Below, in pieces: positions 1 to 64,000 of a stretch of DNA of 64,000 nt; within the stretch, counting starts at the first letter, position 1; every line of letters starts with the position of its first letter. Origin of the DNA: Frondihabitans peucedani (GTDB taxonomy: Bacteria; Actinomycetota; Actinomycetes; Actinomycetales; Microbacteriaceae); NCBI RefSeq assembly GCF_039537585.1, contig NZ_BAABAU010000001.1:248001-312000 (forward strand), read 5' to 3'. A program made the position numbers and the translations under genes. The notes under the pieces are model-generated. The model ran no database searches and was not told where the DNA came from. It was given only the letters and a program-made list of their open reading frames with translations.

Positions 1-39
1 GCTTTCGAAGACCACGACGGGTTCGCCATGCTGACCTGA
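1..39 (+). CDS. 3' end of an upstream gene (partial)
   Basis: The first 39 bases read through as AFEDHDGFAMLT followed by TGA, with C or G at most third codon positions, as in the neighbouring genes. This looks like the last twelve codons of a same-strand gene that begins before the window. It lies 40 bp upstream of the MurR/RpiR-type regulator and could belong to the same operon. The fragment is too short for a family call. Confidence 0.4.
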   Translation, partial: AFEDHDGFAMLT

Positions 40-79
40 ACGGGCAGCGCCGAACACCCGTCAACCGAGAGGGAGCAGC

Positions 80-967
80 ATGTCGATCAACGATGAGATC
101 TTCGCCCGCATGGGCGAACTCAGCCCGGCCGAGAAGAAGGTCGCCAGGACACTCCTGGCCTCCTACCCGAGCGCCGGGCTCGAGAGCGCCGCGACGGTCG
201 CGAAGGCCGCGGGCACCTCGACGCCCACCGTCCTCCGTCTCGTGACCCGGCTCGGCATCGGCAGCTACCCCGACTTCCAGAAGCGTCTCCGCGACGAGAT
301 CACCCACCACATGAACAGCCCGGTGAGCCGCACCGTCGAGGGCATCCGCGACCACGCCCCCGAACCGGTCTTCGAGGCGGCGATGACGGAGAAGACCGCG
401 CTGATCGAGAAGCTCGGCCAGTTCGTGCCCCCGAGCGAGTTCGAGCTGGCCGTGCAGGCGCTCGCGGCGAGGCCCCGGCAGATCGCGATCTCCGGCGGCT
501 ACTTCAGCCGCTACCTCGCGATGCTCCTCGCCACCCAGCTCGATCAGGCGGTGCCAGGGGTCGACTTCGTCGCCGAACCCCTGGGGCACGACATCGGGAA
601 GATCCTGCGCCTGACCGCGGGATCGGTCGCCGTCATCATCGACTTCCGCCGCTACGAGCTCACGGCCAAGCAGGCGGCCGACATCGCCAAGCGGCAGGGC
701 GCGACCGTCATCGTCATCACCGACCAGGGCCTCTCGCCCGCTGCCGAGGGCGCAGACATCGTCCTCCCGGTGCCGGTCGACGGGATCCCGTTCGACTCGT
801 TCGTCGGCCTGCTGGCGCTCCTCGAGGCCCTGGTCGAAGGGGTCCTTCAGGCCACCGACGGCCGCGGGATCGACCGCATGAAGGAGTGGGAGGACACGGT
901 GCAGATCGCCCGCGCCTACCGAGCCACCTCGGTGCTCCAGACCGACTCCGACACCGACGAGAGCTGA
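80..967 (+). CDS. MurR/RpiR family transcriptional regulator (HTH + SIS)
   Basis: A 295-aa sugar-phosphate-responsive regulator. An N-terminal HTH_6/RpiR domain has its recognition region near residues 37-61 (ATVAKAAGTSTPTVLRLVTR). A SIS phosphosugar-binding domain follows from about residue 120 to 250 (RQIAISGGYFSRYLAMLLA). A GAGGGAG ribosome site sits just before the ATG. Such proteins usually bind a phosphorylated sugar or similar ligand and control the adjacent catabolic genes. The SDR gene begins 3 bp downstream, so it probably regulates the following oxidoreductase/hydrolase operon. The ligand cannot be read from sequence. Confidence 0.9.
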   Translation: MSINDEIFARMGELSPAEKKVARTLLASYPSAGLESAATVAKAAGTSTPTVLRLVTRLGIGSYPDFQKRLRDEITHHMNSPVSRTVEGIRDHAPEPVFEAAMTEKTALIEKLGQFVPPSEFELAVQALAARPRQIAISGGYFSRYLAMLLATQLDQAVPGVDFVAEPLGHDIGKILRLTAGSVAVIIDFRRYELTAKQAADIAKRQGATVIVITDQGLSPAAEGADIVLPVPVDGIPFDSFVGLLALLEALVEGVLQATDGRGIDRMKEWEDTVQIARAYRATSVLQTDSDTDES

Positions 968-970
968 GAC

Positions 971-1669: not shown

Positions 1670-1683
1670 AGGGCGGCATACCC

Positions 1684-3402
1684 ATGAGCATCCGAGACCC
1701 CCGGCTCCTCGCCCTTGGCGAACGCTATTTCGAGACCCAGCACACCTACGACCCCTACAACGCCACCCTCCTCGGCATCGACCGGTTCGACGGTCTCGCA
1801 GGCGACCCGTCGCTCGCCGCGAGCGAGAGCGCCGCAGCGGCGCTCGCCGCGATCGGCCGCGATGTCGACGCCCTCGACACGACGGGGTTCAGCGACGACG
1901 AGCTCGCCGACCGCGACGTGCTCGCCGTCCTGGTGCGAGGAGCGCAGGAGGACGCGGAGCACTCCCTGTGGGCCACCAACGCCTCGGCCAAGGGCTACGT
2001 CAGCAGGCAGGGCCTCGTGTTCCAGGCCGTGCCGGCGATGACGGCGAACGACGACGTGAGCGCCGCCCGCTACCTCTCCCGCCTCGGCGGCCTGGCGGGG
2101 TTCTTCGAGGGCCTCGGGAGGCGCTACGTCGAGGAGGCGGCCCGCGGCCGCACCCCGACGCGCACCGGTGTCGAGCAGGCGATCGCGCAGCTGCAGGGGC
2201 ACCTCGCGCTCGACGCCTCCGACGACGCCCTGCTGGGGCCGGCTCGCGGGGCCTCCGATCCTGCGCTTCTCGATTCGGCCCGCAGGATCGTCGAGAACGA
2301 GATCCGCCCCGCCCTCCGCGCCCTCGTCGACCTGCTGCGAACCGAGCTGCTGCCCGTCGGCCGGGAGGGAGACCGGGTCGGCATCCACGCGGTGCCGGGC
2401 GGCGACACGGCGTACGCGGCCGCGATCCGTCGTCACACGACCACCGACCTCACCGCCGCCGAGATCCACCGCATCGGCCTCGACGTGCTCGACGAGATGC
2501 TCGCCGAGTGGAGCGAGGTCGGCGAGCGGGCCCTCGGCGAGCGGGAGTTCCCCGTCATCGCGGAGCGGCTCCGGAGCGATCCCGCCCTCCGCTTCGAGAC
2601 CAGCGACGAGATCATCGCCGTCGCCCGGGGCGCCCTCGATCGCGCGGACGCCGTCCGCGATGCGTACTTCCCGCGCACCGAGATCCCCGAGTGCGTGATC
2701 GAGATCATCAACCCGATCGACGCCGCCGGCAGCGCCCTCGGCTACTACAGGCCGCCGGCCGTCGACGGCAGCCGGCCGGGCGCCTACTGCGTGCTCGCCA
2801 CCGACCCGGAGGAGCACTTCCGCTACGAGTACGAGTCGCTGTCGTTCCACGAGTCGGTGCCGGGCCACCACCTGCAGCTCGCCACCGCGCAGACCCTCGA
2901 CATCCCCCGCTACCGGCGCTACCTCGACGTCGAGGCGTGCAGCTTCAACGAGGGCTGGGGTCTCTACTCGGAGCAGCTGGCCGACGAGGCGGGCCTCTAC
3001 AGCGACGACCTCTCCCGCCTCGGAATGCTGTCGTTCCGCGCCCTTCGCGCCTGCCGCCTCGTCGTCGACACCGGCATCCACCACTTCGGCTGGACCCGCG
3101 AGCGCGCCGTCGAGTTCATGTACGCGCACACCGCGACGACGCTCGAGCACGTCACGAGCGAGGTCGACCGGTACATCGCGTGGCCGGGACAGGCGCTCGC
3201 CTACATGATCGGCCGGCGCGAGATCCTGCGGCTCCGCGAGGAGGCCCGGGAGGCGCTCGGCGACCGGTTCTCGATCGTGGACTTCCACGGGGTCGTGCTC
3301 GGCTCGGGCGCGGTCCCGCTGACCGTGCTCGCCGGCAACGTCGCCCGCTGGCAGGAGCGCCTGCTCCGCGAGCCCCTCTCCCCCACCGAAAGCGAGAAGT
3401 GA
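1684..3402 (+). CDS. DUF885 family protein (predicted zinc metallopeptidase-like)
   Basis: A 572-aa DUF885 protein. The start ATG (MSIRDPRLLALGERYF) is chosen because it has a GAGGGCGG ribosome site and follows the SDR stop; longer readings overlap the SDR gene. The zinc motif HESVPGHH is at residues 389-396. A downstream NEGWGLYSEQLADE segment carries the likely third metal ligand Glu, as in M1/gluzincin-like DUF885 proteins. No signal peptide is seen, so it is probably cytoplasmic. In this operon it may hydrolyse a peptide- or amide-linked substrate, which is inference. Confidence 0.88.
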   Translation: MSIRDPRLLALGERYFETQHTYDPYNATLLGIDRFDGLAGDPSLAASESAAAALAAIGRDVDALDTTGFSDDELADRDVLAVLVRGAQEDAEHSLWATNASAKGYVSRQGLVFQAVPAMTANDDVSAARYLSRLGGLAGFFEGLGRRYVEEAARGRTPTRTGVEQAIAQLQGHLALDASDDALLGPARGASDPALLDSARRIVENEIRPALRALVDLLRTELLPVGREGDRVGIHAVPGGDTAYAAAIRRHTTTDLTAAEIHRIGLDVLDEMLAEWSEVGERALGEREFPVIAERLRSDPALRFETSDEIIAVARGALDRADAVRDAYFPRTEIPECVIEIINPIDAAGSALGYYRPPAVDGSRPGAYCVLATDPEEHFRYEYESLSFHESVPGHHLQLATAQTLDIPRYRRYLDVEACSFNEGWGLYSEQLADEAGLYSDDLSRLGMLSFRALRACRLVVDTGIHHFGWTRERAVEFMYAHTATTLEHVTSEVDRYIAWPGQALAYMIGRREILRLREEAREALGDRFSIVDFHGVVLGSGAVPLTVLAGNVARWQERLLREPLSPTESEK

Positions 3403-5315: not shown

Positions 5316-6362
5316 ATGCGCGCAGCCGTCTACCAGTCCGCCGGAGTCGTCGAGGTCGTCGAGGTCCCCGACGCGTCGATCAGCGATCCCAAAGACGCCC
5401 TCGTGAGGGTCGTCCGCTCCTGCATCTGCGGATCCGACCTCTGGGCCTACCGCGGCATCATCGACCGGGCCGCAGGATCACGACTCGGTCACGAGTTCAT
5501 CGGCGTGGTCGAGGCAGTCGGTTCGGAGGTGACGACCGTGAAACCGGGCGACTTCGTGGTCGCGCCGTTCCAGTGGTCGGACAACACCTGCCCCGCCTGC
5601 CTCGACGGCATCCAGACCCGCTGTGAGCACGGCGGCACCTTCGGTGCTCCCGGAACCGACGGGGGCCAGGGCGAAGCCGTGCGCGTGCCCGAGGCGGACG
5701 GCACCCTCGTCGTCGTTCCCGGCGGCCTCGAATCGACCGACCCGCACCTCCTCCCCGGCCTCCTCGCCCTCAGCGACGTCGCGGCCACCGGTCTCCACGG
5801 AGCCGTGCTCGCCGGCGTGACCGAGGGATCGACCGTCGCCGTCGTGGGCGACGGCGCCGTCGGACTCCTGGCCGTCCTCGGCGCGGTGAAGATCCTGAAG
5901 GCCGAGCGCGTGATCCTGATGAGCAGGCACGACGACCGCGCGGCCCTCGGCCGCAGCTACGGGGCCACCGACGTCGTCGCCGAACGCGGCGAGGAGGGCA
6001 TAGCCCGAGTGCGCGACCTCACCGACGGACTCGGCGTCCGCCACGTCGTCGAGGCCGTCGGCACCCCGGAGTCGTGGGAGATGTCGCTCGGCATGGCCCG
6101 GGTCGGCGGCACTGTCGGCGCTGTCGGCGTGCCGCACACCAGCCCGCAGCTCGGCATCTTCACGCCGTTCCGGCAGCACCTGACCCTCCGGTTCGGGATC
6201 GCGCCCGTCAGGCACTACCTGCCCGACCTCGTCCCGCGGGTCATGGACGGCAGCTACGACCCGGGCGCCGTCTTCGACCTGACGCTGCCGCTCGCCGAAG
6301 CCGCCGACGGGTATCTCGCCATGTCGGAGCGCCGATCCATCAAGACCGCGCTCGCCGGATGA
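5316..6362 (+). CDS. Zinc-dependent alcohol dehydrogenase family protein
   Basis: A 348-aa medium-chain dehydrogenase. The catalytic zinc ligands are Cys38 (CGSD) and the His59-Glu60 pair (GHE). The structural-zinc loop is reduced to Cys92, Cys95 and Cys103 (CPACLDGIQTRC), a pattern seen in some bacterial zinc ADH subgroups. A cofactor motif GDGAVG lies mid-protein. It is the last gene of the operon led by the MurR/RpiR regulator, 53 bp after the ketopantoate-reductase-like gene, with a GAAAGG ribosome site. The substrate alcohol or polyol is unknown. Confidence 0.9.
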   Translation: MRAAVYQSAGVVEVVEVPDASISDPKDALVRVVRSCICGSDLWAYRGIIDRAAGSRLGHEFIGVVEAVGSEVTTVKPGDFVVAPFQWSDNTCPACLDGIQTRCEHGGTFGAPGTDGGQGEAVRVPEADGTLVVVPGGLESTDPHLLPGLLALSDVAATGLHGAVLAGVTEGSTVAVVGDGAVGLLAVLGAVKILKAERVILMSRHDDRAALGRSYGATDVVAERGEEGIARVRDLTDGLGVRHVVEAVGTPESWEMSLGMARVGGTVGAVGVPHTSPQLGIFTPFRQHLTLRFGIAPVRHYLPDLVPRVMDGSYDPGAVFDLTLPLAEAADGYLAMSERRSIKTALAG

Positions 6363-6758: not shown

Positions 6759-8033
6759 GTGTGGACCTCGATCGAACGCCGACCCCTCCTCGTCGACGTC
6801 ATCGTCGCCGTCGTGGCGTTCGCGTTCTTCGGCGTGCTCGACGTCACCCGGACCGGCTGGCAGACGCTGCCGGTCGACGCCCTCTTCGCTCTGGCGGTCG
6901 CCTTCCGGCGCCGCTCCCCCGGCGTAGGCCTGGCGATCGCCTGGGTCGGCGCCGTCGTCCAGCTGGTCGTCCTGCCGTCGTTCATCAACGGCGACGTGCT
7001 GATCGCCGTCGTGATCTTCGCGACGAGTCTGGCCCGGCAGCCGGTCGTCCAGCGCCTCGGGCTCGTGTCGAGCGTCGCGGGCGGCATCATCGCGAGCGTC
7101 AAGCTCGTCCTCGTCACCGGCGACTTCCTACCCCACGGCCAGTCGGACTCGCAGGAGGCGTTCTCCCGGGTCATCTACTCCGTCGGTGTGGCCGGCGTCG
7201 TCGCCGCCGCGCTGGCGCTGTTCTGGCTCCTCGGGATGATCGCGCGCGTCCGCCGCGAACTGCTGACGGCGCGGCTCGAGCGGCTCGAGGGCGAGCAGGA
7301 TCTCCTCCGCGCCGAGCTCCGAGTCGCTCAAGAGACGGAGCGCACCCGCATCTCCCGCGAGATGCACGACGCCATCGGGCACTCGCTCGCGGTGATCATC
7401 GCCCAGTCCGACGGGGCGAGGTACGCGGTCGCGAAGAACCCCGCCGCCGCCACCGACGCGCTCGGCGTGATCAACCGGTCGGCGCGGTCGGCGCTCGACG
7501 ACGTGAGCGAGCTCCTGAGCGTCCTCGCCACCTCGACCGGGCACGAGGGCTCCCTCGGCGTCGCCGACCTCGACACCCTGCTGACGAACATGGAGTCGTC
7601 GGGCCTCGCGATCTCGTTCAACGAGACGGGCGACCGGCTGGATCTGTCGCGATCCTGCGATCTCGCGCTGTTCCGGGTCGTGCAGGAGGTTCTGACCAAC
7701 GCCCTCAAGCACGGCGGCCCCGGCACGACGGTCTCGGTCGCCCTTACCTGGTCGACGCAGGCCGTGACGGTCGACTCGGTCACGACCGAGACCGACGGCC
7801 CTGACCTGCTCGGGCGCGATGCCGACGGCCCCGACCTGCTCGGGCGCGCGGAGGCCGACGACGGCCCGCCGTCGGCCGAGCCGGCACCGACCCGCGGCGG
7901 GCACGGCATCGCGGGCATGGTCGAGCGCGTCCGGCTCGTCGGCGGCAGCGTGACGGCGGGCCCTCGCGCCGACGGAGTCCGCGGCTTCGCGGTCCACGCC
8001 ACGATCCCCCACGCACCCGGAGGTGCCGAATGA
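6759..8033 (+). CDS. Two-component sensor histidine kinase (HisKA_3, NarL-partner type)
   Basis: A 424-aa kinase starting at GTG. Four or five N-terminal membrane segments span about residues 7-175, followed by a coiled linker. The HisKA_3 dimerisation domain has phospho-His203 in REMHDAIGHS, and HATPase_c carries GHGIAGMVERV. An unusual acidic insert with a 30-bp in-frame tandem duplication (DGPDLLGR twice) sits just before the GHGIAGM box, in the ATP-lid region. The gene overlaps its response regulator by ATGA. The signal is unknown. Confidence 0.93.
   Translation: MWTSIERRPLLVDVIVAVVAFAFFGVLDVTRTGWQTLPVDALFALAVAFRRRSPGVGLAIAWVGAVVQLVVLPSFINGDVLIAVVIFATSLARQPVVQRLGLVSSVAGGIIASVKLVLVTGDFLPHGQSDSQEAFSRVIYSVGVAGVVAAALALFWLLGMIARVRRELLTARLERLEGEQDLLRAELRVAQETERTRISREMHDAIGHSLAVIIAQSDGARYAVAKNPAAATDALGVINRSARSALDDVSELLSVLATSTGHEGSLGVADLDTLLTNMESSGLAISFNETGDRLDLSRSCDLALFRVVQEVLTNALKHGGPGTTVSVALTWSTQAVTVDSVTTETDGPDLLGRDADGPDLLGRAEADDGPPSAEPAPTRGGHGIAGMVERVRLVGGSVTAGPRADGVRGFAVHATIPHAPGGAE
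7792..7848 (+). repeat. 30-bp in-frame tandem duplication inside the kinase gene
   Basis: The block starting CCGACGGCC recurs 30 bp later with one silent difference (C to T) over 27 bases. It encodes DGPDLLGR twice. Confidence 0.85.
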
Positions 8034-8701
8034 CCACGATCCGTGTCGGTCTGGCCGACGATCAGCCGCTCTTCCGCGCCGGGATCCGCATGATCCTCGA
8101 CTCGCAGGACGACTTCGAGGTCGTCTGGGAGGCCGGTGACGGCGCCGAGGCCGTCGACCGGTCCCGCGCGGAGCCGGTCGACCTGGTGCTGATGGATCTC
8201 GAGATGCCCCGCATGGGCGGGGTCGAGGCGACCTCGGCGATCCTGCACCCCGACGATCCCGCCGATGTGGTCGCGGGCCTCCGCATCGTCGTCCTGACGA
8301 CCTTCGAACTCACCGACACCACGTTCAAGGCGATCCAGGCCGGGGCGAGCGGGTTCCTGCTGAAGAACGCCGACCCGGAGTTCCTCCTCGCCTCGCTCCG
8401 GACGATCCACGCAGGATCGGCCGTGGTCGCCCCGTCGGTGATGACCGGCCTGGTCGAGCGGTTCGCCCGCCGCTCGGCGGTGGTCGACACCGACGCCCTC
8501 GAGCAGCTCACCGCGCGCGAGCGCGAGATCTTCGCCCTGCTGGCCGCAGGGCTCAGCAACAACGAGATCGCCGCCGACCGTCAGCTGAGCGATGCGACGG
8601 TGAAGACCCACGTGAGCAGGATCCTCGGCAAGCTCGAGCTCCGAGACCGCGTCCAGCTGGTGATCTTCGCCTACGAGAACGGACTCGTCTCCACGGCCTG
8701 A
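8030..8701 (+). CDS. NarL/FixJ family response regulator
   Basis: A 223-aa regulator. The receiver domain has the acidic pair Asp10-Asp11 and phospho-acceptor Asp56 (LVLMDLEMP). The C-terminal LuxR-type HTH (LTAREREIFALLAAGLSNNEIA) lies near residues 160-215. The start overlaps the kinase stop by 4 nt, so the two are translationally coupled. Targets are not evident. Confidence 0.95.
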   Translation: MTTIRVGLADDQPLFRAGIRMILDSQDDFEVVWEAGDGAEAVDRSRAEPVDLVLMDLEMPRMGGVEATSAILHPDDPADVVAGLRIVVLTTFELTDTTFKAIQAGASGFLLKNADPEFLLASLRTIHAGSAVVAPSVMTGLVERFARRSAVVDTDALEQLTAREREIFALLAAGLSNNEIAADRQLSDATVKTHVSRILGKLELRDRVQLVIFAYENGLVSTA

Positions 8702-9978: not shown

Positions 9979-10446
9979 TCAGGCCAGCAGACCCCGGAGC
10001 CGCTCGACCAGCTGCGCCGGCTCGATGTGCTCGTCGGTCGCCTCCAACTCGGCGAGGGTCCACCAGCGCGAGGCGAGGATGTCGACCTTCTCGTCGTCGG
10101 TCCACTCGTCGTCGACGATCTCGAAGTGCGGCAGCCGCACCAGGTAGAACTCGGCGTGGCCGTGCGTGTGGTCGGCTGCGTCCCACGGCACCTCGAAGTC
10201 CTCGGTGAAGAGCACCGGCCCCGGGTCGGCGATGACCTGCCCGGTCTCCTCGCGGAGCTCCCGGACGGCCGCCTGCTCGTGCGACTCCCCCGGGTCGACT
10301 CCTCCGCCCGGCGTGATCCAGCGGCTCGCCCCCGACGTGTCGGGCGACTTCGTCAGCATGAGGAGCACGCGGTCGTCCTGGTCGACGACGATGAGGCGCG
10401 AGGTGGGGCGCAGGATCACGCCGCTCGGGTCGGAGGAGCCGGTCAC
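9979..10446 (-). CDS. NUDIX hydrolase
   Basis: A 155-aa protein with a complete Nudix box (GGGVDPGESHEQAAVRELRE then ETGQ) that binds Mg and hydrolyses nucleoside-diphosphate-linked compounds. It starts at GTG 2 bp after the SDR stop and is therefore coupled to it. It could clean up damaged nucleotides or hydrolyse a small NDP-linked metabolite; the substrate is not predictable. Confidence 0.9.
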   Translation of the reverse strand: MTGSSDPSGVILRPTSRLIVVDQDDRVLLMLTKSPDTSGASRWITPGGGVDPGESHEQAAVRELREETGQVIADPGPVLFTEDFEVPWDAADHTHGHAEFYLVRLPHFEIVDDEWTDDEKVDILASRWWTLAELEATDEHIEPAQLVERLRGLLA

Positions 10447-10448: not shown

Positions 10449-11216
10449 TCAGACCTCGGCGTGGAAGTCGGAGACGTCGCCGACCAGGCGGGTGTGGTCG
10501 GAGGGGATCTCCTCGACGGCGGCGAGGGCCACCTCGGCGGCGAACTCGGCGACGTTGTAGAGCTTCCCGGCCGACTCGCGTCGGGACGAGATCGCGCCGG
10601 GGTTGGAGCGCTCGAGCAGGGTGGCCGTGATGGTGCCCTCGATCATGTCGCCGGAGACGACGACGAACGCCACGCCCTTCTCGTCGAGCTCGGGGACGAG
10701 GTCTCGGAGGGCGTCCTCGCCCGCGCGCTTCGAGAGAGCCACAGGGAGGTACTCGGGCATCGTCTCGGTGGTGCGGATGAAGTGCGCCTGGTGGCTCGTG
10801 ACGAAGACGACGCGCGAGCCCGGGGCCATCAGCGGCAGGGCCTGGCGGAGCACGTCGACCTGCGCGTCGCGGTTGAGGAGCAGCGCGTAGTTCTCGGCCA
10901 TGCCGGTCTCCATGCCGCCCGAGGCGTTCAGGACGAGGAGGTCGAGTTCGCCGAACTCGGTCGTGACGGTCTCGATCATCGACGCGACCGACGCAGGATC
11001 GGTGAGGTCGGCCCGGATCGCGAGGGCGCTGCCGCCCGCCTCCTCGATCTTCGAGACGAGCTGCTGGGCGCGCTTCTCCTTGTTTCGGTAGTTGATGACG
11101 ACGCGCGCGCCGGCCTCGGCGAGGAACCGCGCGGTGTCGGCGCCGACGCCCCGGGAGGAGCCGGTCACGAGTGCTCTCGTGCCCGAGAGGGAACCGGTTG
11201 CGAGGGGGTTGGACAC
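10449..11216 (-). CDS. SDR family oxidoreductase
   Basis: A 255-aa short-chain dehydrogenase. The cofactor motif TGSSRGVG is near residues 17-24 and is followed by an NADP-type basic residue (NYRNKEKR). The NAG motif is altered to LNASGG. The active-site region reads FVTSHQAHFIRT, with no canonical YxxxK immediately after, so activity may be atypical. Minus-strand SD (AGGAGCACC) precedes the start. It forms a two-gene operon with the Nudix gene. Confidence 0.85.
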   Translation of the reverse strand: MSNPLATGSLSGTRALVTGSSRGVGADTARFLAEAGARVVINYRNKEKRAQQLVSKIEEAGGSALAIRADLTDPASVASMIETVTTEFGELDLLVLNASGGMETGMAENYALLLNRDAQVDVLRQALPLMAPGSRVVFVTSHQAHFIRTTETMPEYLPVALSKRAGEDALRDLVPELDEKGVAFVVVSGDMIEGTITATLLERSNPGAISSRRESAGKLYNVAEFAAEVALAAVEEIPSDHTRLVGDVSDFHAEV

Positions 11217-11360: not shown

Positions 11361-11849
11361 ATGATCGAGTTCTTCACCGACTACTCGTGGGTCCTCTGGG
11401 TCGCGCTGGTCCTGCTCTTCGTGATCGTCGAGGTCGCGACCGTCGACTTCACCTTCCTGATGCTCGCCATCGGGAGCGTGGGCGGCCTCCTGGCCGGTCT
11501 CTTCGGCGCCCCGTTCTGGCTGCAGATCATCGTGGCCGCGGTCGTGTCGATCCTGCTGCTCTTCACGGTCCGGCCCCCGCTCCTCCGCGCACTGAAGCGC
11601 GGTGGCGACCCGACGCCCTCGAACATCGAGGCCCTCCTCGGCGCGCGCGGCGTCGTCGTGGTGCCCCTGATCGACCGTCAGGGCGACTCCGGGCTCGGGC
11701 AGGTCAAGCTCTCCAACGGCGAGACCTGGACGGCGCGGCTCCTCGCGCCGACGGGCCAGGACTCGCTCGACACCGGGGCGACCGTCGTCGTCACCGCGAT
11801 CGAGGGGTCGACGGCGGTCGTCGTCCCCGGCGAAAGGACACCCTCATGA
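11361..11849 (+). CDS. NfeD family membrane protein
   Basis: A 162-aa protein. The ATG at 11361 is preferred because GAGGGGG lies 9 nt upstream; in-frame ATGs at 11334 and 11352 are poorly placed. Two or three N-terminal membrane helices (WVLWVALVLLFVIVEV and on) are followed by a C-terminal OB-fold NfeD domain (GARGVVVVPL, then GEWTARL-like GETWTARL). NfeD proteins partner with SPFH/stomatin proteins, and the next gene, overlapping by ATGA, is exactly that. Probably part of membrane microdomain maintenance. Confidence 0.88.
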   Translation: MIEFFTDYSWVLWVALVLLFVIVEVATVDFTFLMLAIGSVGGLLAGLFGAPFWLQIIVAAVVSILLLFTVRPPLLRALKRGGDPTPSNIEALLGARGVVVVPLIDRQGDSGLGQVKLSNGETWTARLLAPTGQDSLDTGATVVVTAIEGSTAVVVPGERTPS

Positions 11850-12814: not shown

Positions 12815-13567
12815 GTGACCGCGTGGTTCACCCCTGGCCCGCCCAGGATCATCGCGCACCGCGGGCTCGCCACCGAGGCTCCCGAGAACACGCTGCTCGC
12901 CTTCGTGAGCGCTCTCGCGCTCGGGGTCACGCATCTCGAGACGGACGTCCACGCGACGAGCGACGGCGTGGCGGTGCTGAGTCACGATCCCGACCTCGCA
13001 CGGCTCACGGGGCGGGCGACGGCCATCGCGTCGACGAGCCTCGCCGCGCTGCAGCGGATCGACCTCGGGGCCGATCAGCAGGTCCCGACCCTGCGTGAGA
13101 CGCTGCGGGCCTTCCCCGACGCCCGTTTCAACATCGACATCAAGGCCGATGCAGCCCTCCAGCCGACGATCGACGCGATCCTGCGCGAGAGGGCCGTCGA
13201 GAGGGTGCTCGTCACGTCGTTCGACGACGCGAGGCGGAAGGCCGCCGTCGCGGCTCTCCCCGGCGTCGCGACGTCGCCCTCGTCGCGCGGCGTGGTCCTC
13301 GCGGCGCTCGCGTCGCGGGCGCCGACAGCGAGGCTCAGGAGGCTCGGGTTCCGCGACATCGACGCGATCCAGGTTCCGGAGCGCTACCGCGGCGTCCCGA
13401 TCGTTACGGGGCGCCTGGTCGAGGCCGCCCACGAGAGCGGCGTCGAGGTCCACGTGTGGACGATCGACGACGCGGACGACATGCGGCGCCTGTTCGCCCT
13501 CGGAGTCGACGGTGTCATCACCGACCGCGCCGACATCGGCCTCGAGGTGCTGACGCGCCTGGTCTGA
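12815..13567 (+). CDS. Glycerophosphodiester phosphodiesterase family protein
   Basis: A 250-aa GDPD. The catalytic HRG motif is at about residues 15-17 (IIAHRGLATEAPENT), followed by ETDVHATSDGVAVLSHDPDL with the metal-binding Glu/Asp and second His, and the C-terminal VEVHVWTIDD. It starts at GTG 6 bp after the SPFH stop and has no signal peptide. The family hydrolyses glycerophosphodiesters to glycerol-3-phosphate and an alcohol. Confidence 0.93.
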   Translation: MTAWFTPGPPRIIAHRGLATEAPENTLLAFVSALALGVTHLETDVHATSDGVAVLSHDPDLARLTGRATAIASTSLAALQRIDLGADQQVPTLRETLRAFPDARFNIDIKADAALQPTIDAILRERAVERVLVTSFDDARRKAAVAALPGVATSPSSRGVVLAALASRAPTARLRRLGFRDIDAIQVPERYRGVPIVTGRLVEAAHESGVEVHVWTIDDADDMRRLFALGVDGVITDRADIGLEVLTRLV

Positions 13568-14104: not shown

Positions 14105-15679
14105 TCACCTCCGAGAGCGTCGGCTGATGTCGGCGCTTTTCGTCTGCCCGGAGTCGGGCGACGGGCCGGTTCGCAGCAGGATCGCCGCCATCGCGAGCAC
14201 CGCGAGCCCGAAGAGCGACACCAGCCCTTCCAGCGCCCCGCCGATCGCGATGGCCGGAGTGATCCCCTTCCCGAGCGTGACCGTCGTCTCGAGGACGCCG
14301 GGCGCATAGGCCGGGATCTCGTCGACGGTGGAGCCGTCGGCGGCGATGACGGCGCTCGAGCCCACGGTCGAGATGTTGACGAGCGGCCGCGACGACTCGA
14401 TGGCCCGCAGTCGCGCGATCGCCAGCTGCTGGGTGTTCTCATCGGTCCGGCCGAAGTCGGCGTTGTTCGTCTGCGCCAGGATCACCTGAGCGCCGCCCCG
14501 CACCATCCGGGTGGTGAGGGCGTCGTCGACGATGTCGAAGCAGATCGAGATCCCGGCTCGGATCCGGCCGACGTCGAGGACGTTCGGCTTCGACCCGATC
14601 GTGTAGTCGCGGGCGATCAGGTCGACGAGCGACGGGGCGAAGGGGCGCCAGAACGACCGGTCGGGCACGTACTCCCCGAACGGCACCAGGTGGATCTTGT
14701 CGTACTGTGCCGTGACCCTCCCACCCGACCAGACGATCGACGAGTTGTAGATCTTCTTGCCCCGCTGGGTGATGACGCCCGAGACGAGCGGCGCGCCGTA
14801 GGCCTTCGAGATGGTGTCGAAGACGTAGGTGCCGTACCGGTCGCGGGTGGGATCGCGGTCGCTCGCCCCCTCCGGCCAGACGATCATGTCGACCTTCTTC
14901 GACGTCGACAGCCCGTCGTAGGTGGCGAGCACCTGGGCGTCGGTGAGGTCGCCGTACTGGCGCTTGTCGAAGTAGCCCGCCCTGCCGTTCCCCTGCACGG
15001 CCGCGATGGTCGAGGTCCCGGCCGACTGCACGGGCCAGGCCGGGATCGCCAGGATCGCGACGACCGTGGTGGCAGCGACGAGCACGCGGGTCCGGCGCAG
15101 GATCGGCTTCTCGACCACGAGCTGCACGAGGAGGGCAGTCACCCCCACCAGGAGGAAGCTCAGCCCGGAGATCCCCACCCAGGCCACCAGCGACGCGAAC
15201 GGGCTCTCGGACTGGCTCTCGGCGACGCGGCCCCAGGAGAATCCGCCGTACGGCCAGTGGCCGGACGCGTACTCCCGCGCCGTCCAGAGACCGGCGACCG
15301 TGACCGGCAGGAGCACGAGGCGGCCGACGGACGACGGCCACACCCGCGGCACCCAGCGGTAGGCGAGCGTGATCAGCACGGCCCCGACGGCGAAGAAGAG
15401 CGCCTCGAGGGTGGAGAGGGCGACCCAGGGCAGCGCGCCCAGGTAGAGGCTCGTCCACTGCACGTGGACGAGGAAGAAGGACAGGCCGCCGACGAGGCCC
15501 ACGAGGAACGATCCGCCGATCCTGCGCCCGGCGAACGCGACGAGGTAGAGCGCGACGCCGACGAACGCCAGCGGCCACACGCCCTTGTCGGGGAAGGCGG
15601 CGTCGAGGATCGGGCCCGCGCCGAGCGCCACCACGACGGCGGCCCAGAGAGGCAGGTGGAAGTCGGGGGTGCGGGGCAC
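14105..15679 (-). CDS. lnt: Apolipoprotein N-acyltransferase
   Basis: A 524-aa integral membrane enzyme with about six N-terminal helices, then a nitrilase-like domain. Catalytic regions: Glu in IVWPEGASD, Lys in YDKIHLVPFGEYVP, Cys in AGISICFDIVDD. A final helix near the C-terminus anchors the domain. It N-acylates lipoproteins using phospholipid. The GTG at 15679 is chosen because TACACT lies 6 nt before it; an alternative GTG at 15745 would overlap the helY stop by GTGA. Unlike mycobacterial Ppm1 there is no fused polyprenol-phosphomannose synthase, and none lies between lnt and rbpA. Confidence 0.93.
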   Translation of the reverse strand: MPRTPDFHLPLWAAVVVALGAGPILDAAFPDKGVWPLAFVGVALYLVAFAGRRIGGSFLVGLVGGLSFFLVHVQWTSLYLGALPWVALSTLEALFFAVGAVLITLAYRWVPRVWPSSVGRLVLLPVTVAGLWTAREYASGHWPYGGFSWGRVAESQSESPFASLVAWVGISGLSFLLVGVTALLVQLVVEKPILRRTRVLVAATTVVAILAIPAWPVQSAGTSTIAAVQGNGRAGYFDKRQYGDLTDAQVLATYDGLSTSKKVDMIVWPEGASDRDPTRDRYGTYVFDTISKAYGAPLVSGVITQRGKKIYNSSIVWSGGRVTAQYDKIHLVPFGEYVPDRSFWRPFAPSLVDLIARDYTIGSKPNVLDVGRIRAGISICFDIVDDALTTRMVRGGAQVILAQTNNADFGRTDENTQQLAIARLRAIESSRPLVNISTVGSSAVIAADGSTVDEIPAYAPGVLETTVTLGKGITPAIAIGGALEGLVSLFGLAVLAMAAILLRTGPSPDSGQTKSADISRRSRR

Positions 15680-39114: not shown

Positions 39115-39181
39115 CAGCGCAGGATCCCGCGGCCTGTGGAGAGGCCCGGCACCGGACGGCGACCCGCGTCACCCTCGACGC

Positions 39182-49668: not shown

Positions 49669-49707
49669 TCCTGCTCAGTCGACGCGGCGACGCGTGACCC
49701 TGCGCCC

Positions 49708-50811
49708 TCAGCGGCCTGCGGCCACCCTCTCGAGCAGGTCGAGCAGGATCGCGGCCGAGCGGTCCCAGCTGAAGTGCGACGCCTGCTCGACCCCGCGGGC
49801 GCTCCGGGCCTCCCACTCCGCCGGCGTGTCGAGGCGTCGGAGCGCCTCGGCGATCGACGAGGGCGACTCCGGATCAAAGTAGAGGGCCGCGTCGCCGCCG
49901 ATCTCGCGGAAGATCGGGATGTCGCTGACGACGGCCGGGGTGCCGAGGGCCATGCCCTCGATGACCGGGATGCCGAAGCCCTCGGCTCGCGAGGCGGTCA
50001 CGGCGGCGGTGGCCCCGAGCAGCACCTCGCGGTACTCCTCGTCGCTCGCGCCGTCGTGGAAGACCAGGCTTCCGGGCGCCGCGAGGCCCTCGAGCTCCTG
50101 GCGCTCGCGGTCCGAGACACGGCTCATCAGGTGCAGGCGGTAGCCGGGCAGGAGGGCGAGGGCGCGGACGAGGGCTCGGACGTTCTTGTACGGCATGAAG
50201 GAGCCCATGTACACGAGGTCGCGCGACTCGGGCTTCACCCGCCGCTCTGCCTCCTGCGGGTCGGCGGCGTTCGTGACGACCGTCACCGGCTTCGAGGTGA
50301 GGCGGTGGGCGGCGATCTCGCGCGCCGTCGTCTCGCTGACGGTCACGACGGCGTCGGCGCGGTTCAGCAGCAGCCGCTGCGGCCACCAGGCGAGGTGGTA
50401 CAGCCTCCACAGCAGCCGGATGGGCGCTGCGAACTCCGGCGGCGGCGTGCGGTTGGTGTAGTAGATGAGGTCGTGCAGGGTGAGCACGAGCCGGTACCGG
50501 CGCCCGAACGACCCCATCGTCTGCATCGGCGACCAGACGATGTCGGGGTGCAGCCGGTTCACCTGGAGAGCGACGAGCGGCTCGAGGGGGCTCGTGGGAG
50601 CCGAGACGAGGCGGTGCGGCGCGTCCGGCAGCTTGTCGAGCTGCCGCACGTCGTTCACGAGCAGGGTCAGCTCGGTGTGCTCCGCGAGGGCGTTCACGAC
50701 TCCCGCGGTGAAGCGGCTGATGCCGTCGTGGCGGCCCACCCGGACGTACCGGCAGTCGACGACGATCCTCGGCCGGCCGCTCTCCCCGCGGTCTCCGTGG
50801 GCTCCGCTCAT
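49708..50811 (-). CDS. Family 4 glycosyltransferase
   Basis: A 367-aa GT-B enzyme. N-terminal VRVGRHDGISRFTAGVVNAL, acceptor domain HDLIYYTNRTPPPEF, and donor domain LVYMGSFMPYKNVRALVRAL with ASRAEGFGIPVIEGMALGTP. Related to mannosyl- and glucosyltransferases of cell-envelope glycans. Overlaps the preceding alpha/beta hydrolase gene by 4 nt. Confidence 0.9.
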   Translation of the reverse strand: MSGAHGDRGESGRPRIVVDCRYVRVGRHDGISRFTAGVVNALAEHTELTLLVNDVRQLDKLPDAPHRLVSAPTSPLEPLVALQVNRLHPDIVWSPMQTMGSFGRRYRLVLTLHDLIYYTNRTPPPEFAAPIRLLWRLYHLAWWPQRLLLNRADAVVTVSETTAREIAAHRLTSKPVTVVTNAADPQEAERRVKPESRDLVYMGSFMPYKNVRALVRALALLPGYRLHLMSRVSDRERQELEGLAAPGSLVFHDGASDEEYREVLLGATAAVTASRAEGFGIPVIEGMALGTPAVVSDIPIFREIGGDAALYFDPESPSSIAEALRRLDTPAEWEARSARGVEQASHFSWDRSAAILLDLLERVAAGR

Positions 50812-51722
50812 CGGAGGAAGTCCGTGATCAGCGTGGCCGCCTCGAGCGGCTTCTCGTAGTGGATGAGGTGCCCCACCCCGTGGACGACGTCGAGCTGAGC
50901 GTCGGGGAAGAGCGCCTGCAGCTCGTATTGCCTCGGCAGAGCCGTGATGTCGTCGCGGTCGGCGGCGATCAGGAGCGTGGGTGTCGTGATCCTGCGGGCG
51001 TAGGTCGAGACGTCGCTCGACACCGACGCGGTGAAGGCCTCCAGCACGACGCGCCGGTTCTGGAACCTCGAGAAGTAGGAGTCGTGCTGATCGTGGATCC
51101 AGGCGGTGAGTGACCGGCTCCTCGTCTTGACCATCGCCATGCTCGTCACCCGCGTCACGATCCGGGAGCGCAGGATCGCCTGGCCCACCGGCTCCGGGAG
51201 CCGCGCGCCCAGCCAGTGGTACAGGATCGCCAGCCTGCTCAGGATGCCACGGGGCCCCTTCAGCGCGGGCGCCGCGATCGGATTCACCAGCACCAGCCTC
51301 GACGCCGGAAGCCCCGACGCCAGGGCCGCGCTCGCGACGATCGACCCGAACGAGTGCCCGAGGACGACGACGTCTCGCCCGATCCCCACCGCCTCGGCGA
51401 AGACCTCCAGCCAGGACGCGTAGCTCGCCACCGAGTGGTCGCGGTCTCGGAACGCCTCCGACTCGCCGAAGCCCGGCAGGTCGGGAGCGATCACGCGGAC
51501 GCCCTCGAGGTACGCCACCACCGGCTCGAGGCCGTGGTGCTCGCCCCGGAACCCGTGGACCACCAGCACGGTCACCGGGGCGTCGTCGTCGCCGTACACC
51601 CAGTAGTCGCTCCGGCTCCCGAACACCTCGGCCGACAGGTGCCGCACCGGGATCGCGGCCAGCCGCTCCGCGTACGGCGAGGGGACGGACGGCTCGGGCG
51701 GGAGGCGGCGGGGCGGAGTCAC
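50808..51722 (-). CDS. Alpha/beta hydrolase
   Basis: A 304-aa alpha/beta hydrolase with nucleophile motif GHSFGS near residue 123, VLVVHGFRGEHHG oxyanion loop, acid region LIAADRDDITALP and His in HGVGHLIHYEKP. No signal peptide; N-terminus Pro-rich. Two-gene operon with a glycosyltransferase suggests a role with a lipid or glycan ester, but this is inference. GTG start with TAGACT 6 nt upstream. Confidence 0.9.
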   Translation of the reverse strand: MTPPRRLPPEPSVPSPYAERLAAIPVRHLSAEVFGSRSDYWVYGDDDAPVTVLVVHGFRGEHHGLEPVVAYLEGVRVIAPDLPGFGESEAFRDRDHSVASYASWLEVFAEAVGIGRDVVVLGHSFGSIVASAALASGLPASRLVLVNPIAAPALKGPRGILSRLAILYHWLGARLPEPVGQAILRSRIVTRVTSMAMVKTRSRSLTAWIHDQHDSYFSRFQNRRVVLEAFTASVSSDVSTYARRITTPTLLIAADRDDITALPRQYELQALFPDAQLDVVHGVGHLIHYEKPLEAATLITDFLR

Positions 51723-51840: not shown

Positions 51841-53598
<1,758 letters not shown>

Positions 53599-54408: not shown

Positions 54409-54414
54409 CGAAGC

Positions 54415-56939: not shown

Positions 56940-56952
56940 AAGCGACAGAACA

Positions 56953-57531: not shown

Positions 57532-57571
57532 CGCCCTTCTCGCCCGCCCCCCTTTCGAAGGAGAATCGACC

Positions 57572-58822: not shown

Positions 58823-58825
58823 TCG

Positions 58826-60665: not shown

Positions 60666-60674
60666 GAATCAAGG

Positions 60675-61859: not shown

Positions 61860-63322
61860 ACGACGAGCATGGGCTGTCCGGCGTCGTCGACCCGGGCGGA
61901 TTCGTCGCGGAGCGCTTCGGCGTCCGACTCCACACCGATCAGGAGGCGAGCGTCGTCCCCGTCGGACGACTGGTCGGGCTCGCGCTCCGGAAGAACCCGC
62001 GCCGGGCCCACCTCCTCGTCTCGACCGTCCTGGCGAAGCACGTGCCGACCGACCCGGCGACGACGATCGCCGCGGGTGCCCTGCTCGGCGTGCTGGTCGC
62101 CGAGCTCCTCGCCGCCGAGGGCGGGGTCCCGCGGCTGCCGTCGGCCCGGGCGAGGGCGTTCGGCGATCGACTCACGGAGGTCCTCGAAGGGAGGGGCAGA
62201 GCCGACGGTCTCCGGGCCCTCCTCGTCGACGCGAGGGTCTCCGATCCTGCGCTGTCGGTGATCGGATACGCCGAGACGGCGACCGGCCTCGGCAGGATCG
62301 TGGCCGACACGCTCGGAGCGGCGTACATCCACTCCACGCGCCTCGACGTGCCCGGCTCGCGCTCGTTCGCCGGCTTCGAGGAGGAGCACTCGCACGCGAC
62401 GAGTCACCGGCTGCTCCCCCGCCGGAGCGACTGGTTCCGCGCCGGAGGGACCGTCGTGCTGGTCGACGACGAGGTGAGCACCGGATCGACGATCATCAAC
62501 ACGATCCGTTCGCTGCACGCCGTCGTGCCGCAGCGCCGGTGGGTGGTCGCCGCGCTGATCGACCTCCGCTCCGGGGTCGACCGGGCCCGCTTCGACGCCC
62601 TCGCGGCCGAGCTCGGCGCCGCGATCGACGTCGTGGCCCTCGGGACCGGCAGCATCGACCTCCCGAGCGGTCTTCTCGACGAGGCACAGCGGTTCTTCGC
62701 AGACACGGCTGATGCCGTTGTGCCCGACGCGCACGTCTCCGCGCCGGGAGCCGTGTCGCTCGTCGACCTCCGCGCGCACCCGCCCGTCCCCCTCGACCGG
62801 TTCGGCACCCTCGCCGACGAGCGTCCCGACCTCCTCGCCGGGTCCGAGACGGCGCGTGCCCTCGCGGCGGCCGTCGCGGCGGAGGCCGCGGTCCCGCGGC
62901 GAGATCCGCAGGATCACGACAGCCCGCCTCGCGTCCTCGTCCTCGGCACCGAGGAGGCCATCGCCCTCCCGCTGGCCGTCGCCGACGCGCTCCGCGAGGC
63001 GACGACGGCCGAGGTGGTCTTCTCGACGACGACGCGCTCTCCCATCCACCCTCTCGACCGCGGCGACTACGCGATCCAGACGGCGGTCCGCTTCGACCGG
63101 CACGACCGGGTGCTCGATGACGAGCCGCGGCGCTACGCCTACAACCTCACCCGGGGCGGCGAACGCTTTGACGAGATCGTGCTCGTCCCCGAGCCCGGCA
63201 CACCGGAAGACGCCCTGACCGGGCCGGGCAGCGTGACCGAGGCCCTCGCGGGCGTCGCCTCCCGGGTGACCGTGATCCTGCTGACCGCCCCTCTCGCCCC
63301 TTCGGAGTCCTCCCGTGCCTGA
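61856..63322 (+). CDS. Phosphoribosyltransferase family protein (Ter-associated)
   Basis: A 488-aa protein. The N-terminal half is a PRTase domain with PRPP-binding VLVDDEVSTGSTIINTIRSL near residue 207; an orotate-PRTase-like AATGLGRIVADTLG region precedes it. A second domain (VLVLGTEEAIALPLAVADAL, TTRSPIHPLDRGDYAIQTAV) is the TRSP domain of this family. Predicted to join a base-like moiety to phosphoribose for the Ter metabolite. GTG start overlaps the lyase stop by 4 nt. Confidence 0.88.
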   Translation: MNDEHGLSGVVDPGGFVAERFGVRLHTDQEASVVPVGRLVGLALRKNPRRAHLLVSTVLAKHVPTDPATTIAAGALLGVLVAELLAAEGGVPRLPSARARAFGDRLTEVLEGRGRADGLRALLVDARVSDPALSVIGYAETATGLGRIVADTLGAAYIHSTRLDVPGSRSFAGFEEEHSHATSHRLLPRRSDWFRAGGTVVLVDDEVSTGSTIINTIRSLHAVVPQRRWVVAALIDLRSGVDRARFDALAAELGAAIDVVALGTGSIDLPSGLLDEAQRFFADTADAVVPDAHVSAPGAVSLVDLRAHPPVPLDRFGTLADERPDLLAGSETARALAAAVAAEAAVPRRDPQDHDSPPRVLVLGTEEAIALPLAVADALREATTAEVVFSTTTRSPIHPLDRGDYAIQTAVRFDRHDRVLDDEPRRYAYNLTRGGERFDEIVLVPEPGTPEDALTGPGSVTEALAGVASRVTVILLTAPLAPSESSRA

Positions 63323-64000
63323 GCCCCTCACCTCCCCCGCCTTCGGGTCGTACTCCCCCGACGACGTCGGCTGGCTCCTCCACGACCTCGGCGACCTCGC
63401 CCTCGAGGCCGACGCGGCGACCCGCGAGGCCGAGATCCAGTCCGGGCGGGCGAACTACGCCGAGTCGCTGCCGATCGAGTACGTCCCGACCGCCGAGTAC
63501 CAGGCGCTCTATCGCGAGGCGCTCGAGCGGTCGAGTCGCAGGATCGCCGAGGCGGTCGGGGTGGTCACCGAACTCGCCCTCGCCGCGCGGCGGGCGACAC
63601 CGGTCTTCGTGTCTCTGGCCCGTGCCGGGACCCCCGTCGGCGTCCTGATGCGGCGCTGGGCCCGGGAGGTCCGCGGGCTCGACGTGCCGCACTACACGAT
63701 GAGCATCGTCCGGGGCGTCGGGATCGACGAGACGGCCCTCCACTACCTGGCCGAGCACCACGATCCCGGAGACGTCGTGTTCGTCGACGGCTGGACGGGC
63801 AAGGGCGCGATCGCCCGCGAGCTCTCGGCGGCGCTCGCCCTCTTCGCGGAGCGGACCGGCATCCGATTCTCCGACGACCTGGCGGTGCTCGCCGATCCCG
63901 GTCACTGCGTCACGATCTTCGGCACGCGAGACGACTACCTGATCCCCTCGGCGTGCCTCAACTCGACCGTGTCCGGTCTCGTGTCGCGGACCGTCTACAG
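63315..64000 (+). CDS. Cysteine protease StiP family protein (partial, cut by window end)
   Basis: A GTG-start gene open to the window end (228 codons visible). FGSYSPDDVGWLLHDLGDLA begins the protein; VFVSLARAGTPVGVLMRRW is followed by a PRTase-like loop, VFVDGWTGKGAIARELSAAL, and CLNSTVSGLVSRTV. It matches the StiP/PELOTA-linked protein of Ter clusters. It overlaps the phosphoribosyltransferase stop by 8 nt. The rest of the module (HAD, ATP-grasp) would lie beyond 64000. Confidence 0.85.
   Translation, partial: MPEPLTSPAFGSYSPDDVGWLLHDLGDLALEADAATREAEIQSGRANYAESLPIEYVPTAEYQALYREALERSSRRIAEAVGVVTELALAARRATPVFVSLARAGTPVGVLMRRWAREVRGLDVPHYTMSIVRGVGIDETALHYLAEHHDPGDVVFVDGWTGKGAIARELSAALALFAERTGIRFSDDLAVLADPGHCVTIFGTRDDYLIPSACLNSTVSGLVSRTVY

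What the first reader, a model, noticed from the sequence alone, without database searches (positions are those of the whole stretch)
1..64000. Octamer GATCCTGC/GCAGGATC is about twenty times more frequent than base composition predicts
Counting by eye I find about 47 copies in the window (about 23 as GATCCTGC, 24 as GCAGGATC), on both strands, in and between genes, with core context CGATCCTGCG. With about 70% GC and independent bases the expectation is about 2. In several genes the word uses codons that are rare here: in-frame GAT CCT GCG at 2257, 30316, 45185 and 62243; in-frame GCA GGA TCG at 8411, 48774 and 53320. A palindromic double copy, GCAGGATCCTGC, is at 35088-35099. The absence of strand bias argues against a KOPS-like polar motif. 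It could be a recombination, uptake, nucleoid-binding or methylation word, similar in kind to HIP1 or DUS. The function is unknown.
Basis: partly seen in the sequence, partly recalled or inferred. Interest (0 to 1): 0.8.

Follow-up and report, generated by a model that had tools for sequence, protein, structure and literature searches.

The report
Genome-wide DNA word with species dialects
This actinobacterium's chromosome is sprinkled with thousands of copies of one eight-letter DNA word, and its relatives carry differently spelled versions of that word, a pattern so far familiar from the tags that some bacteria use to recognise and take up their own kind's DNA.

Summary
In detail: the window has 23 GATCCTGC and 24 GCAGGATC, and the whole genome (a Frondihabitans, Microbacteriaceae) has 3208, against 22 for the reversed control. 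It is not codon usage. In 695 called genes there are 552 copies against about 71 after synonymous-codon shuffling, with all six frames enriched, and intergenic density equals genic density. There is no strand polarity. The surprise lies outside the window: all 7 Frondihabitans held are enriched, but the favoured spelling shifts. GTTCCTGC has 1394 copies in one species, 173-304 in the other six. CGGATCCTT has 460 in another, 11-26 in the rest. Other Microbacteriaceae use GCATCCGT, up to 2154 copies, against 76-154 in the six Frondihabitans counted. The words align as N-H-T-C-C-K-K-C. Best explanation: a DNA-uptake-type self-recognition word spread by molecular drive, like DUS/USS dialects. The genome has a type IV pilus operon and ComEC, but uptake is not shown, and type IV pili are missing from several word-rich genera. 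KOPS, RecBCD-Chi and HIP1 are disfavoured. The paper listings I saw did not describe it.

The parts
601..608 (+). GATCCTGC site
   Evidence: exact match
2257..2264 (+). GATCCTGC site, in-frame GAT CCT GCG
2282..2289 (-). GATCCTGC site
3222..3229 (+). GATCCTGC site
5472..5479 (-). GATCCTGC site
7295..7302 (-). GATCCTGC site
7651..7658 (+). GATCCTGC site
8239..8246 (+). GATCCTGC site
8411..8418 (-). GATCCTGC site, in-frame GCA GGA TCG
8616..8623 (-). GATCCTGC site
10410..10417 (-). GATCCTGC site
10993..11000 (-). GATCCTGC site
11549..11556 (+). GATCCTGC site
13177..13184 (+). GATCCTGC site
14176..14183 (-). GATCCTGC site
15097..15104 (-). GATCCTGC site
15518..15525 (+). GATCCTGC site
18036..18043 (+). 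GATCCTGC site
18459..18466 (-). GATCCTGC site
19410..19417 (-). GATCCTGC site
20732..20739 (-). GATCCTGC site
29561..29568 (-). GATCCTGC site
30316..30323 (+). GATCCTGC site, in-frame GAT CCT GCG
30992..30999 (-). GATCCTGC site
35088..35095 (-). GATCCTGC site, left half of palindromic double copy
35092..35099 (+). GATCCTGC site, right half of palindromic double copy
35374..35381 (+). GATCCTGC site
35655..35662 (+). GATCCTGC site
38555..38562 (+). GATCCTGC site
39119..39126 (-). GATCCTGC site, not wholly inside a called gene
40540..40547 (+). GATCCTGC site
44160..44167 (+). GATCCTGC site
45056..45063 (-). GATCCTGC site
45185..45192 (+). GATCCTGC site, in-frame GAT CCT GCG
46039..46046 (+). GATCCTGC site
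48774..48781 (-). GATCCTGC site, in-frame GCA GGA TCG
49667..49674 (+). GATCCTGC site, not wholly inside a called gene
49743..49750 (-). GATCCTGC site
50988..50995 (+). GATCCTGC site
51170..51177 (-). GATCCTGC site
52089..52096 (+). GATCCTGC site (treS)
53320..53327 (-). GATCCTGC site, in-frame GCA GGA TCG (treS)
62243..62250 (+). GATCCTGC site, in-frame GAT CCT GCG
62292..62299 (-). GATCCTGC site
62908..62915 (-). GATCCTGC site
63274..63281 (+). GATCCTGC site
63538..63545 (-). GATCCTGC site

Best explanation
GATCCTGC (extended CGATCCTGCG) is the Frondihabitans dialect of a highly iterated, non-palindromic word found in many Microbacteriaceae. The most likely mechanism is that of a DNA uptake sequence: a cell-surface, probably pilus-borne receptor prefers fragments that carry the word; these are imported through ComEC and recombined into the chromosome; alleles that happen to carry the word are therefore transferred more often and accumulate wherever the protein sequence tolerates them (molecular drive). 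When the receptor's preference shifts, a new dialect builds up while the old one decays. SHOWN here: the excess, its presence in all frames and between genes, strand balance, absence of polarity, graded near-matches, turnover of single sites at about the background rate, species dialects that share a core, low counts in two low-GC stretches (one with a relaxase), and a type IVa pilus operon plus a ComEC homologue in this genome. INFERRED: that a receptor reads the word, that it acts in DNA uptake, and that drive is the cause of the accumulation.
For: Density 0.87/kb, balanced strands. All six frames enriched (GAT CCT GCN 114 vs 2.3; GCA GGA TCN 68 vs 0.8; NGC AGG ATC 87 vs 8.0; NNG CAG GAT C 66 vs 4.7; NNG ATC CTG C 211 vs 54.9; NGA TCC TGC 6 vs 0.17) and intergenic = genic density. 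114 of 586 CCT codons and 177 of 1134 GAT codons in the sampled genes lie in the word. No polarity. Spacing indistinguishable from random (595 gaps, KS p 0.41). Graded excess 7.6x / 1.42x / 1.03x at 0 / 1 / 2 mismatches, as described for uptake words (PMC1939737, passages seen). Dialects by whole-genome counts: GATCCTGC 844-3208 in the 7 Frondihabitans and 1559 in G052 of another genus; GTTCCTGC 1394 in G005 and 173-390 in the other 11 genomes searched; CGGATCCTT 460 in G002 and 11-31 in the other 11; GCATCCGT up to 2154 in other genera but 76-154 in the six Frondihabitans listed. In seven GCATCCGT-rich genomes the excess is in all six frames. Neisseriaceae DUS show dialects around a conserved core (PMC3630211, passages seen). 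Low density in C2:1-20000 with a TrwC relaxase (0.05/kb) and in C4:300001-320000 (0.15/kb), both about 64% GC. Machinery: type IVa pilus operon between rpoC and rpsL; ComEC in 29 of 29 genomes.
Against: No uptake or transformation data exist here. The retraction ATPase PilT is above cut-off in only 123 of 249 family genomes; the word-rich G062, G146, G217 and G039 lack it. Over all 85 one-per-genus rows PilT+ genomes have more GCATCCGT (125 vs 92 per Mb, p 0.018), but this vanishes when genomes under 2 Mb are left out (125 vs 120, p 0.46). In genus g79 the one PilT+ genome (G197) has fewer copies than the three without it. Tad pili could substitute (TadE strong in 8 of the 9 non-Frondihabitans positives, weak in G052), but that cut was chosen after seeing the data, and TadE is weak or absent in the 7 Frondihabitans. 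Pili plus ComEC also occur in genomes without a detected word (G021, G073, G036; Tad only in G035, G064). Minor pilins do not follow dialect: G002 (different dialect) is 79-80% identical to G000, G006 (same word) 38-41%. Word sites are not conserved better than arbitrary control words (36 of 149 vs 40.6 expected; controls 88 of 348 vs 95.3). Inverted pairs are rare and mostly inside genes.
Confidence: 0.5

Rival explanations
1. The word is the binding site of an intracellular DNA protein, for example a regulatory site of the actinobacterial end-resection machine (AdnAB or AddAB type, Chi-like) or an abundant nucleoid protein, and selection keeps many copies for repair or chromosome organisation.
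For: The word is widespread and its density does not depend on PilT among genomes of 2 Mb or more; genic and intergenic DNA are alike.
Against: No strand polarity, which Chi and segregation words usually have (recalled). RecC is absent in 29 of 29 genomes, so the E. coli-type Chi reader is missing; AdnAB and AddAB were not searched. Dialect change within one genus would need very many sites to be rebuilt for an intracellular protein. Single sites are not conserved beyond background.
Confidence: 0.25
2. The word marks self DNA for a defence or modification system (an orphan or restriction methyltransferase, HIP1-like), and is enriched because modified copies are protected or regulate replication.
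For: GATC and GGATCC lie inside several dialects; HIP1 is tied to methyltransferases (PMC4390886, abstract start in search listing).
Against: Dialects GTTCCTGC and GCATCCGT have no palindrome in common with GATCCTGC; classic restriction leads to avoidance, not excess (recalled). Methylation and methyltransferase content were not examined.
Confidence: 0.12
3. A context-dependent mutation or repair bias (like very-short-patch repair in E. coli) creates the word without any function.
For: GATCCTAC is absent from the called genes of the 752-kb sample and GATCCTTC is not in excess, the kind of neighbour one would lose under biased repair at one base.
Against: The expectation for GATCCTAC is only 2.0. 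Orthologous positions differ at all eight bases, not one. Dialects differ at several positions. Vsr genes were not searched.
Confidence: 0.07
4. Composition or codon-pair artefact.
For: Frame NNG ATC CTG C uses preferred codons and alone gives 55 of the 71 copies expected by codon shuffling.
Against: 552 vs 71 after codon shuffling, excess in antisense and rare-codon frames and between genes; the 79 TreS loci of other species have 0-8 copies each in 9-22 kb, that of F. sucicola 22.
Confidence: 0.01

Closest known systems
DNA uptake sequence (DUS) of Neisseriaceae and its dialects
   Same: Short non-palindromic word in very many copies on both strands, in genes and between them; species dialects around a shared core; near-matches also in excess (PMC3630211 and PMC1939737, passages).
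   Different: Monoderm actinobacteria; no uptake data; no identified receptor; few inverted repeats; shared core is TCC rather than the DUS core CTG (although GATCCTGC happens to contain CTG).
Uptake signal sequence (USS) of Pasteurellaceae
   Same: Density near 0.8 per kb and two dialect types in one family (both recalled); accumulation explained by molecular drive (PMC1939737, passages).
   Different: Sequence unrelated; Gram-negative machinery; USS has AT-rich flanking parts (recalled), none seen here.
HIP1 of cyanobacteria
   Same: Octamer highly iterated throughout the chromosome.
   Different: HIP1 is a palindrome with associated methyltransferases (PMC4390886, search listing); this word is not palindromic and its dialects share no palindrome.
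Chi and KOPS
   Same: Over-represented octamers (recalled).
   Different: Strand polarity relative to replication absent here; RecC absent.

Membership tests
DNA uptake sequence (DUS/USS) | Non-palindromic short word in large excess over codon and composition expectation | tested here: met
   552 vs 71; 3208 vs 22 reversed control
[quoted passage not shown]
   max 54.3% vs null mean 55.3% on 446 sites of contig C1; 291 vs 339 by GC skew. The origin was not located.
DNA uptake sequence (DUS/USS) | Graded excess of near-matches | tested here: met
   7.6x, 1.42x, 1.03x at 0, 1, 2 mismatches
DNA uptake sequence (DUS/USS) | Family dialects with a shared core | tested here: met
   no word detected in 8 of the sampled genomes
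DNA uptake sequence (DUS/USS) | Rare in recently acquired DNA | tested here: inconclusive
   the two lowest of 34 stretches of 20 kb (1 and 3 sites) are 64% GC; one has a relaxase, the other glycosyl- and glycerophosphotransferases but also COX1, so its acquired origin is not shown
DNA uptake sequence (DUS/USS) | Part of the copies as inverted repeats at gene ends | tested here: not met
   18 inverted pairs 8-60 nt apart: 12 of one arrangement, 6 of the other; 4 of the 12 between genes, 2 of these just after a gene's 3' end. Only about 10% of DUES are inverted repeats per PMC1939737, so not a strict requirement
DNA uptake sequence (DUS/USS) | Competence machinery (type IV or Tad pilus plus ComEC) | tested here: met
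   for this genome; across the family type IV pilins (PF07963) are missing from 4 of 16 word-positive genomes
DNA uptake sequence (DUS/USS) | Sequence-specific pilin receptor that tracks dialect | tested here: inconclusive
   minor pilins diverge strongly but do not follow dialect
DNA uptake sequence (DUS/USS) | The word raises uptake or transformation of DNA | not testable with these tools
   needs a transformation assay
HIP1 | Palindrome | tested here: not met
   GATCCTGC and the dialects GTTCCTGC, CGGATCCTT and GCATCCGT are not palindromes
HIP1 | Cognate methyltransferase | not tested
   methyltransferases and methylation were not examined
KOPS (FtsK) | Strong polarity toward the terminus | tested here: not met
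Chi (RecBCD) | Presence of RecC; leading-strand bias | tested here: not met
   RecC 0 of 29, with E. coli ringing in the control; no bias. Other nucleases (AdnAB, AddAB) not tested
Vsr-type biased repair | Excess produced by substitution at one base of the word | tested here: not met
   mismatches in relatives at all eight positions; Vsr genes not searched

The most novel reading that the evidence does not exclude
Microbacteriaceae, and perhaps other monoderm actinobacteria, run a self-recognition DNA uptake system with species-specific spellings (GATCCTGC, GTTCCTGC, CGGATCCTT, GCATCCGT and others). It would be the first dialect-bearing uptake word outside the Gram-negative families known for it (recalled), read by a receptor on a type IV or Tad pilus, and acting as a genetic barrier between sister species.
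Probability: 0.45. Interest if true: 0.9.

Novelty: new variant of a known kind. Interest (0 to 1): 0.76.

Why it matters
If the word is an uptake tag, it would show directed, kin-biased transformation in a large Gram-positive family, could explain species barriers to gene flow there, and would give a new, independent case in which the evolution of uptake dialects can be studied (three spellings within one genus confirmed by whole-genome counts, and a fourth suggested by samples of G004). If it is not an uptake tag, then a family-wide, fast-changing, strand-symmetric chromosomal word with no known reader is itself unexplained. Either way the word may serve as a simple marker for foreign DNA in these genomes (inferred; only two low-count stretches were looked at).

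Tried and rejected
One search mixed relatives' loci into the 'own genome' counts and was superseded. One search crashed on N, and (expectation-maximisation motif search) converged on codon periodicity in most genomes; codon-shuffle counting replaced them. GATCCTAC = 0 looked like biased repair, but the codon-shuffle expectation is only 2.0. The idea that inverted pairs are terminators failed (8 of the 12 hairpin-type pairs lie inside genes). The idea that type IVa pili explain the family distribution failed for genomes of 2 Mb or more (p 0.46), although 9 of the 10 densest GCATCCGT genomes among the 85 rows have PilT. A minor pilin as the dialect determinant is not supported. A combined 'any pilus' association (16 of 16 word-positive vs 5 of 13 word-negative, p 0.0003) uses a TadE cut chosen after seeing the data, ignores shared ancestry, and rests for five of the negatives (G015, G018, G035, G064, G072) on whole-genome counts of two words only; I do not lean on it. 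Chi via RecBCD rejected. Of the family genomes I asked to sample, two (G083, G055) gave no stretch and G028 only 5 kb, so they do not count. Papers: I saw passages of PMC4322843, PMC3630211 and PMC1939737; all other papers only as search listings, most of them capped.
Full report
WHAT IS THERE. The window holds 23 GATCCTGC and 24 GCAGGATC; 18 of 47 have the extended form CGATCCTGCG. Expectation is 2.2 from base composition, 9.9 from a third-order and 30.1 from a fifth-order Markov model. The genome (3,692,699 bases, 12 contigs; the window is C1:248001-312000) has 1629 + 1579 copies against 10 + 12 of the word read backwards, 0.87 per kb. The maltose glucosyltransferase (TreS) of the window is 94% identical to that of Frondihabitans sucicola, the best named hit, so this is taken to be a Frondihabitans (Microbacteriaceae).

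IT IS NOT CODON USAGE. In 752 kb sampled from this genome (about 8 kb of it N or short pieces) I called 695 genes. The word occurs 552 times in genes; shuffling synonymous codons within genes gives 70.9. All six frames are enriched, including those that force rare codons (GAT CCT GCN 114 vs 2.3; GCA GGA TCN 68 vs 0.8; NGC AGG ATC 87 vs 8.0). Density between genes, 0.84/kb, equals that in genes, 0.83/kb. 114 of 586 CCT codons (19.5%) and 177 of 1134 GAT codons (15.6%) lie inside the word. Copies with one mismatch are 1.42 times expectation, with two 1.03 times.

DISTRIBUTION. Orientation shows no relation to GC skew (291 on the G-rich strand, 339 on the other), and the largest polarity for any choice of origin and terminus on contig C1 is 54.3% (446 sites, 23 stretches), below the mean of random orientation (55.3%); the origin itself was not located. 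Sense copies outnumber antisense ones (331 vs 221), as expected from the favourable frame NNG ATC CTG C. Distances between neighbours fit an exponential (595 gaps, KS p 0.41). Ten overlapping palindromic doubles (GCAGGATCCTGC) occur among 630 sites. Inverted pairs 8-60 nt apart number 18 (12 of one arrangement, 6 of the other); 4 of the 12 are between genes, and two of these just follow a gene's 3' end, so they are not in general terminators. Counts per 20 kb range from 1 to 31 in 34 stretches. The two lowest are 64% GC; one carries a TrwC relaxase, the other glycosyl- and glycerophosphotransferase genes but also COX1, so only the first is clearly mobile.

DIALECTS. All 7 Frondihabitans genomes held are enriched in GATCCTGC (844 to 3208 copies). 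Of the other genomes among 249 drawn from the family most have roughly 0.02-0.2 per kb; one of another genus, G052, has 1559 in 2.9 Mb. Codon-shuffle tests on 87-667 kb of coding sequence per Frondihabitans or G052 genome show that the best word differs: GATCCTGC in G000, G006, G001, G003 and G052; GCATCCTGC and GCTCCTGC alongside it in G004; GTTCCTGC in G005; CGGATCCT(T) in G002. Whole-genome counts confirm two of the variants: GTTCCTGC 1394 in G005 (reversed control 197) against 173-304 in the other six Frondihabitans and 214-390 in five other genomes; CGGATCCTT 460 in G002 against 11-26 and 14-31. Outside the genus, 41 TreS loci (L022-L062, nearly all named as Microbacteriaceae) together show GCATCCGT 106 against 20. 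In whole genomes it reaches 2154 copies in 3.3 Mb (G034), 1973 (G030), 1779 (G058) and 1585 (G062), but 76-154 in the six Frondihabitans listed there. Seven GCATCCGT-rich genomes together show the excess in all six frames; their intergenic density (11 sites, 0.31/kb) is a little below the genic one (162 sites, 0.42/kb). G039 prefers GGATCCGTC. The words align on a common frame, N-H-T-C-C-K-K-C (H = A, C or T; K = G or T). No clear word was seen in the samples of G050, G036, G021, G022, G019, G100, G056 and G073 (17-56 kb of coding sequence each), so the word may not be universal, though small samples can miss weaker ones.

SITE TURNOVER. In 149 comparisons of own sites with orthologous positions in six Frondihabitans and G052 the word is identical in 36; all 8-mers in the same codon phase predict 40.6. 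A set of seven control words does the same (88 of 348 against 95.3), while one-mismatch words are held less (56 of 400 against 100.2). Single sites are thus not held more firmly than other sequence. Mismatches in relatives fall on all eight positions. This favours a process that keeps creating sites over one that guards individual sites, and argues against a repair bias at one base.

MACHINERY. The genome has a type IVa pilus operon between rpoC and rpsL: pilB, pilT, pilC, two pilA, two minor pilins, a PilX-like protein, pilD, pilM, pilN, pilO (Pfam supports pilB/pilT/pilC/pilA/one minor pilin/pilD/pilM; the names of pilN, pilO, the 458-aa minor pilin, the PilX-like gene and the flanking rpoC and rpsL are inferred from sequence and position). 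ComEC is present in 29 of 29 genomes tested. Type IV pilins (PF07963) are in 12 of 16 word-positive and 3 of 13 word-negative genomes (p 0.009, not corrected for ancestry). PilT is above cut-off in 123 of 249 family genomes. Among 85 one-per-genus rows, 9 of the 10 with most GCATCCGT per Mb have PilT, and PilT+ rows have more of it overall (125 vs 92 per Mb, p 0.018), but not when genomes under 2 Mb are left out (125 vs 120, p 0.46). TadE is strong in 8 of the 9 non-Frondihabitans positives (not in G052) and weak or absent in the 7 Frondihabitans. In Micrococcus luteus, another actinobacterium, transformation needs Tad pili; the term 'uptake sequence' does not occur in that paper (PMC4322843, passages). 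So a pilus of one kind or the other is present in each of the 16 word-positive genomes examined, but also in 5 of the 13 word-negative ones. Minor pilins are among the fastest-diverging parts (36-80% identity within the genus where PilB is 93-96%; PilO is similar), but they do not follow dialect. RecC is absent from all 29 genomes.

INTERPRETATION. The combination of strand balance, presence in genes and between them, graded near-matches, turnover of sites and dialects that change between sister species around a shared core is that of DNA uptake sequences (PMC3630211 and PMC1939737, passages). I know of no other class of word with species dialects (recalled). I put the uptake reading at 0.5, an intracellular reader at 0.25, a methylation or defence mark at 0.12, and a mutational origin at 0.07.

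WHAT IS KNOWN. Searches for over-represented octamers with HIP1, DNA uptake sequences in Actinobacteria (no paper), dialects, Microbacteriaceae competence, the words themselves (no paper) and Frondihabitans genomes showed no description of this word or of uptake words in Actinobacteria in the titles and abstract starts listed. Searches matched more papers than the 10-15 listed, and subscription journals are mostly not in that library, so absence from print is not proven.

Noticed in passing
L096 (Intrasporangium flavum TreS locus, 21.7 kb): Palindrome GACGCGTC is strongly over-represented: strand-summed count 26 (13 sites) in called genes against 4.7 expected after codon shuffling.
   Followed up: no
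G034 stretches L163, L183, L184: Palindrome TCTCGAGA, in the context GTCTCGAGAC: strand-summed count 22 against about 0.8 expected, beside that genome's GGCATCCGTC word.
   Followed up: no
own genome sample (752 kb): Palindrome ATCGCGAT: strand-summed count 130 against 29.6 by third-order Markov.
   Followed up: no
G003:C1:2981383-2982173: ComEC appears split over two reading frames in this Frondihabitans; broken gene or assembly error.
   Followed up: no
   Followed up: no
window 20740-29560 and 53328-62242: Two gaps of about 9 kb without any copy of the word (mean spacing in the genome sample 1.1 kb); the second ends inside a gene with PRTase_2 and TRSP domains.
   Followed up: no
TreS loci L063-L100 (mostly Micrococcaceae): Words AATCCGCA (56 vs 17) and GATCCGCA (107 vs 50) are in excess and also contain ATCC; possibly related words in neighbouring families.
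   Followed up: no
L058 (Agrococcus baldri TreS locus): GCGATGCC/GGCATCGC is about eight times more frequent than in the other TreS loci (16 vs 1.9); it is not in the later codon-shuffle listing.
   Followed up: partly
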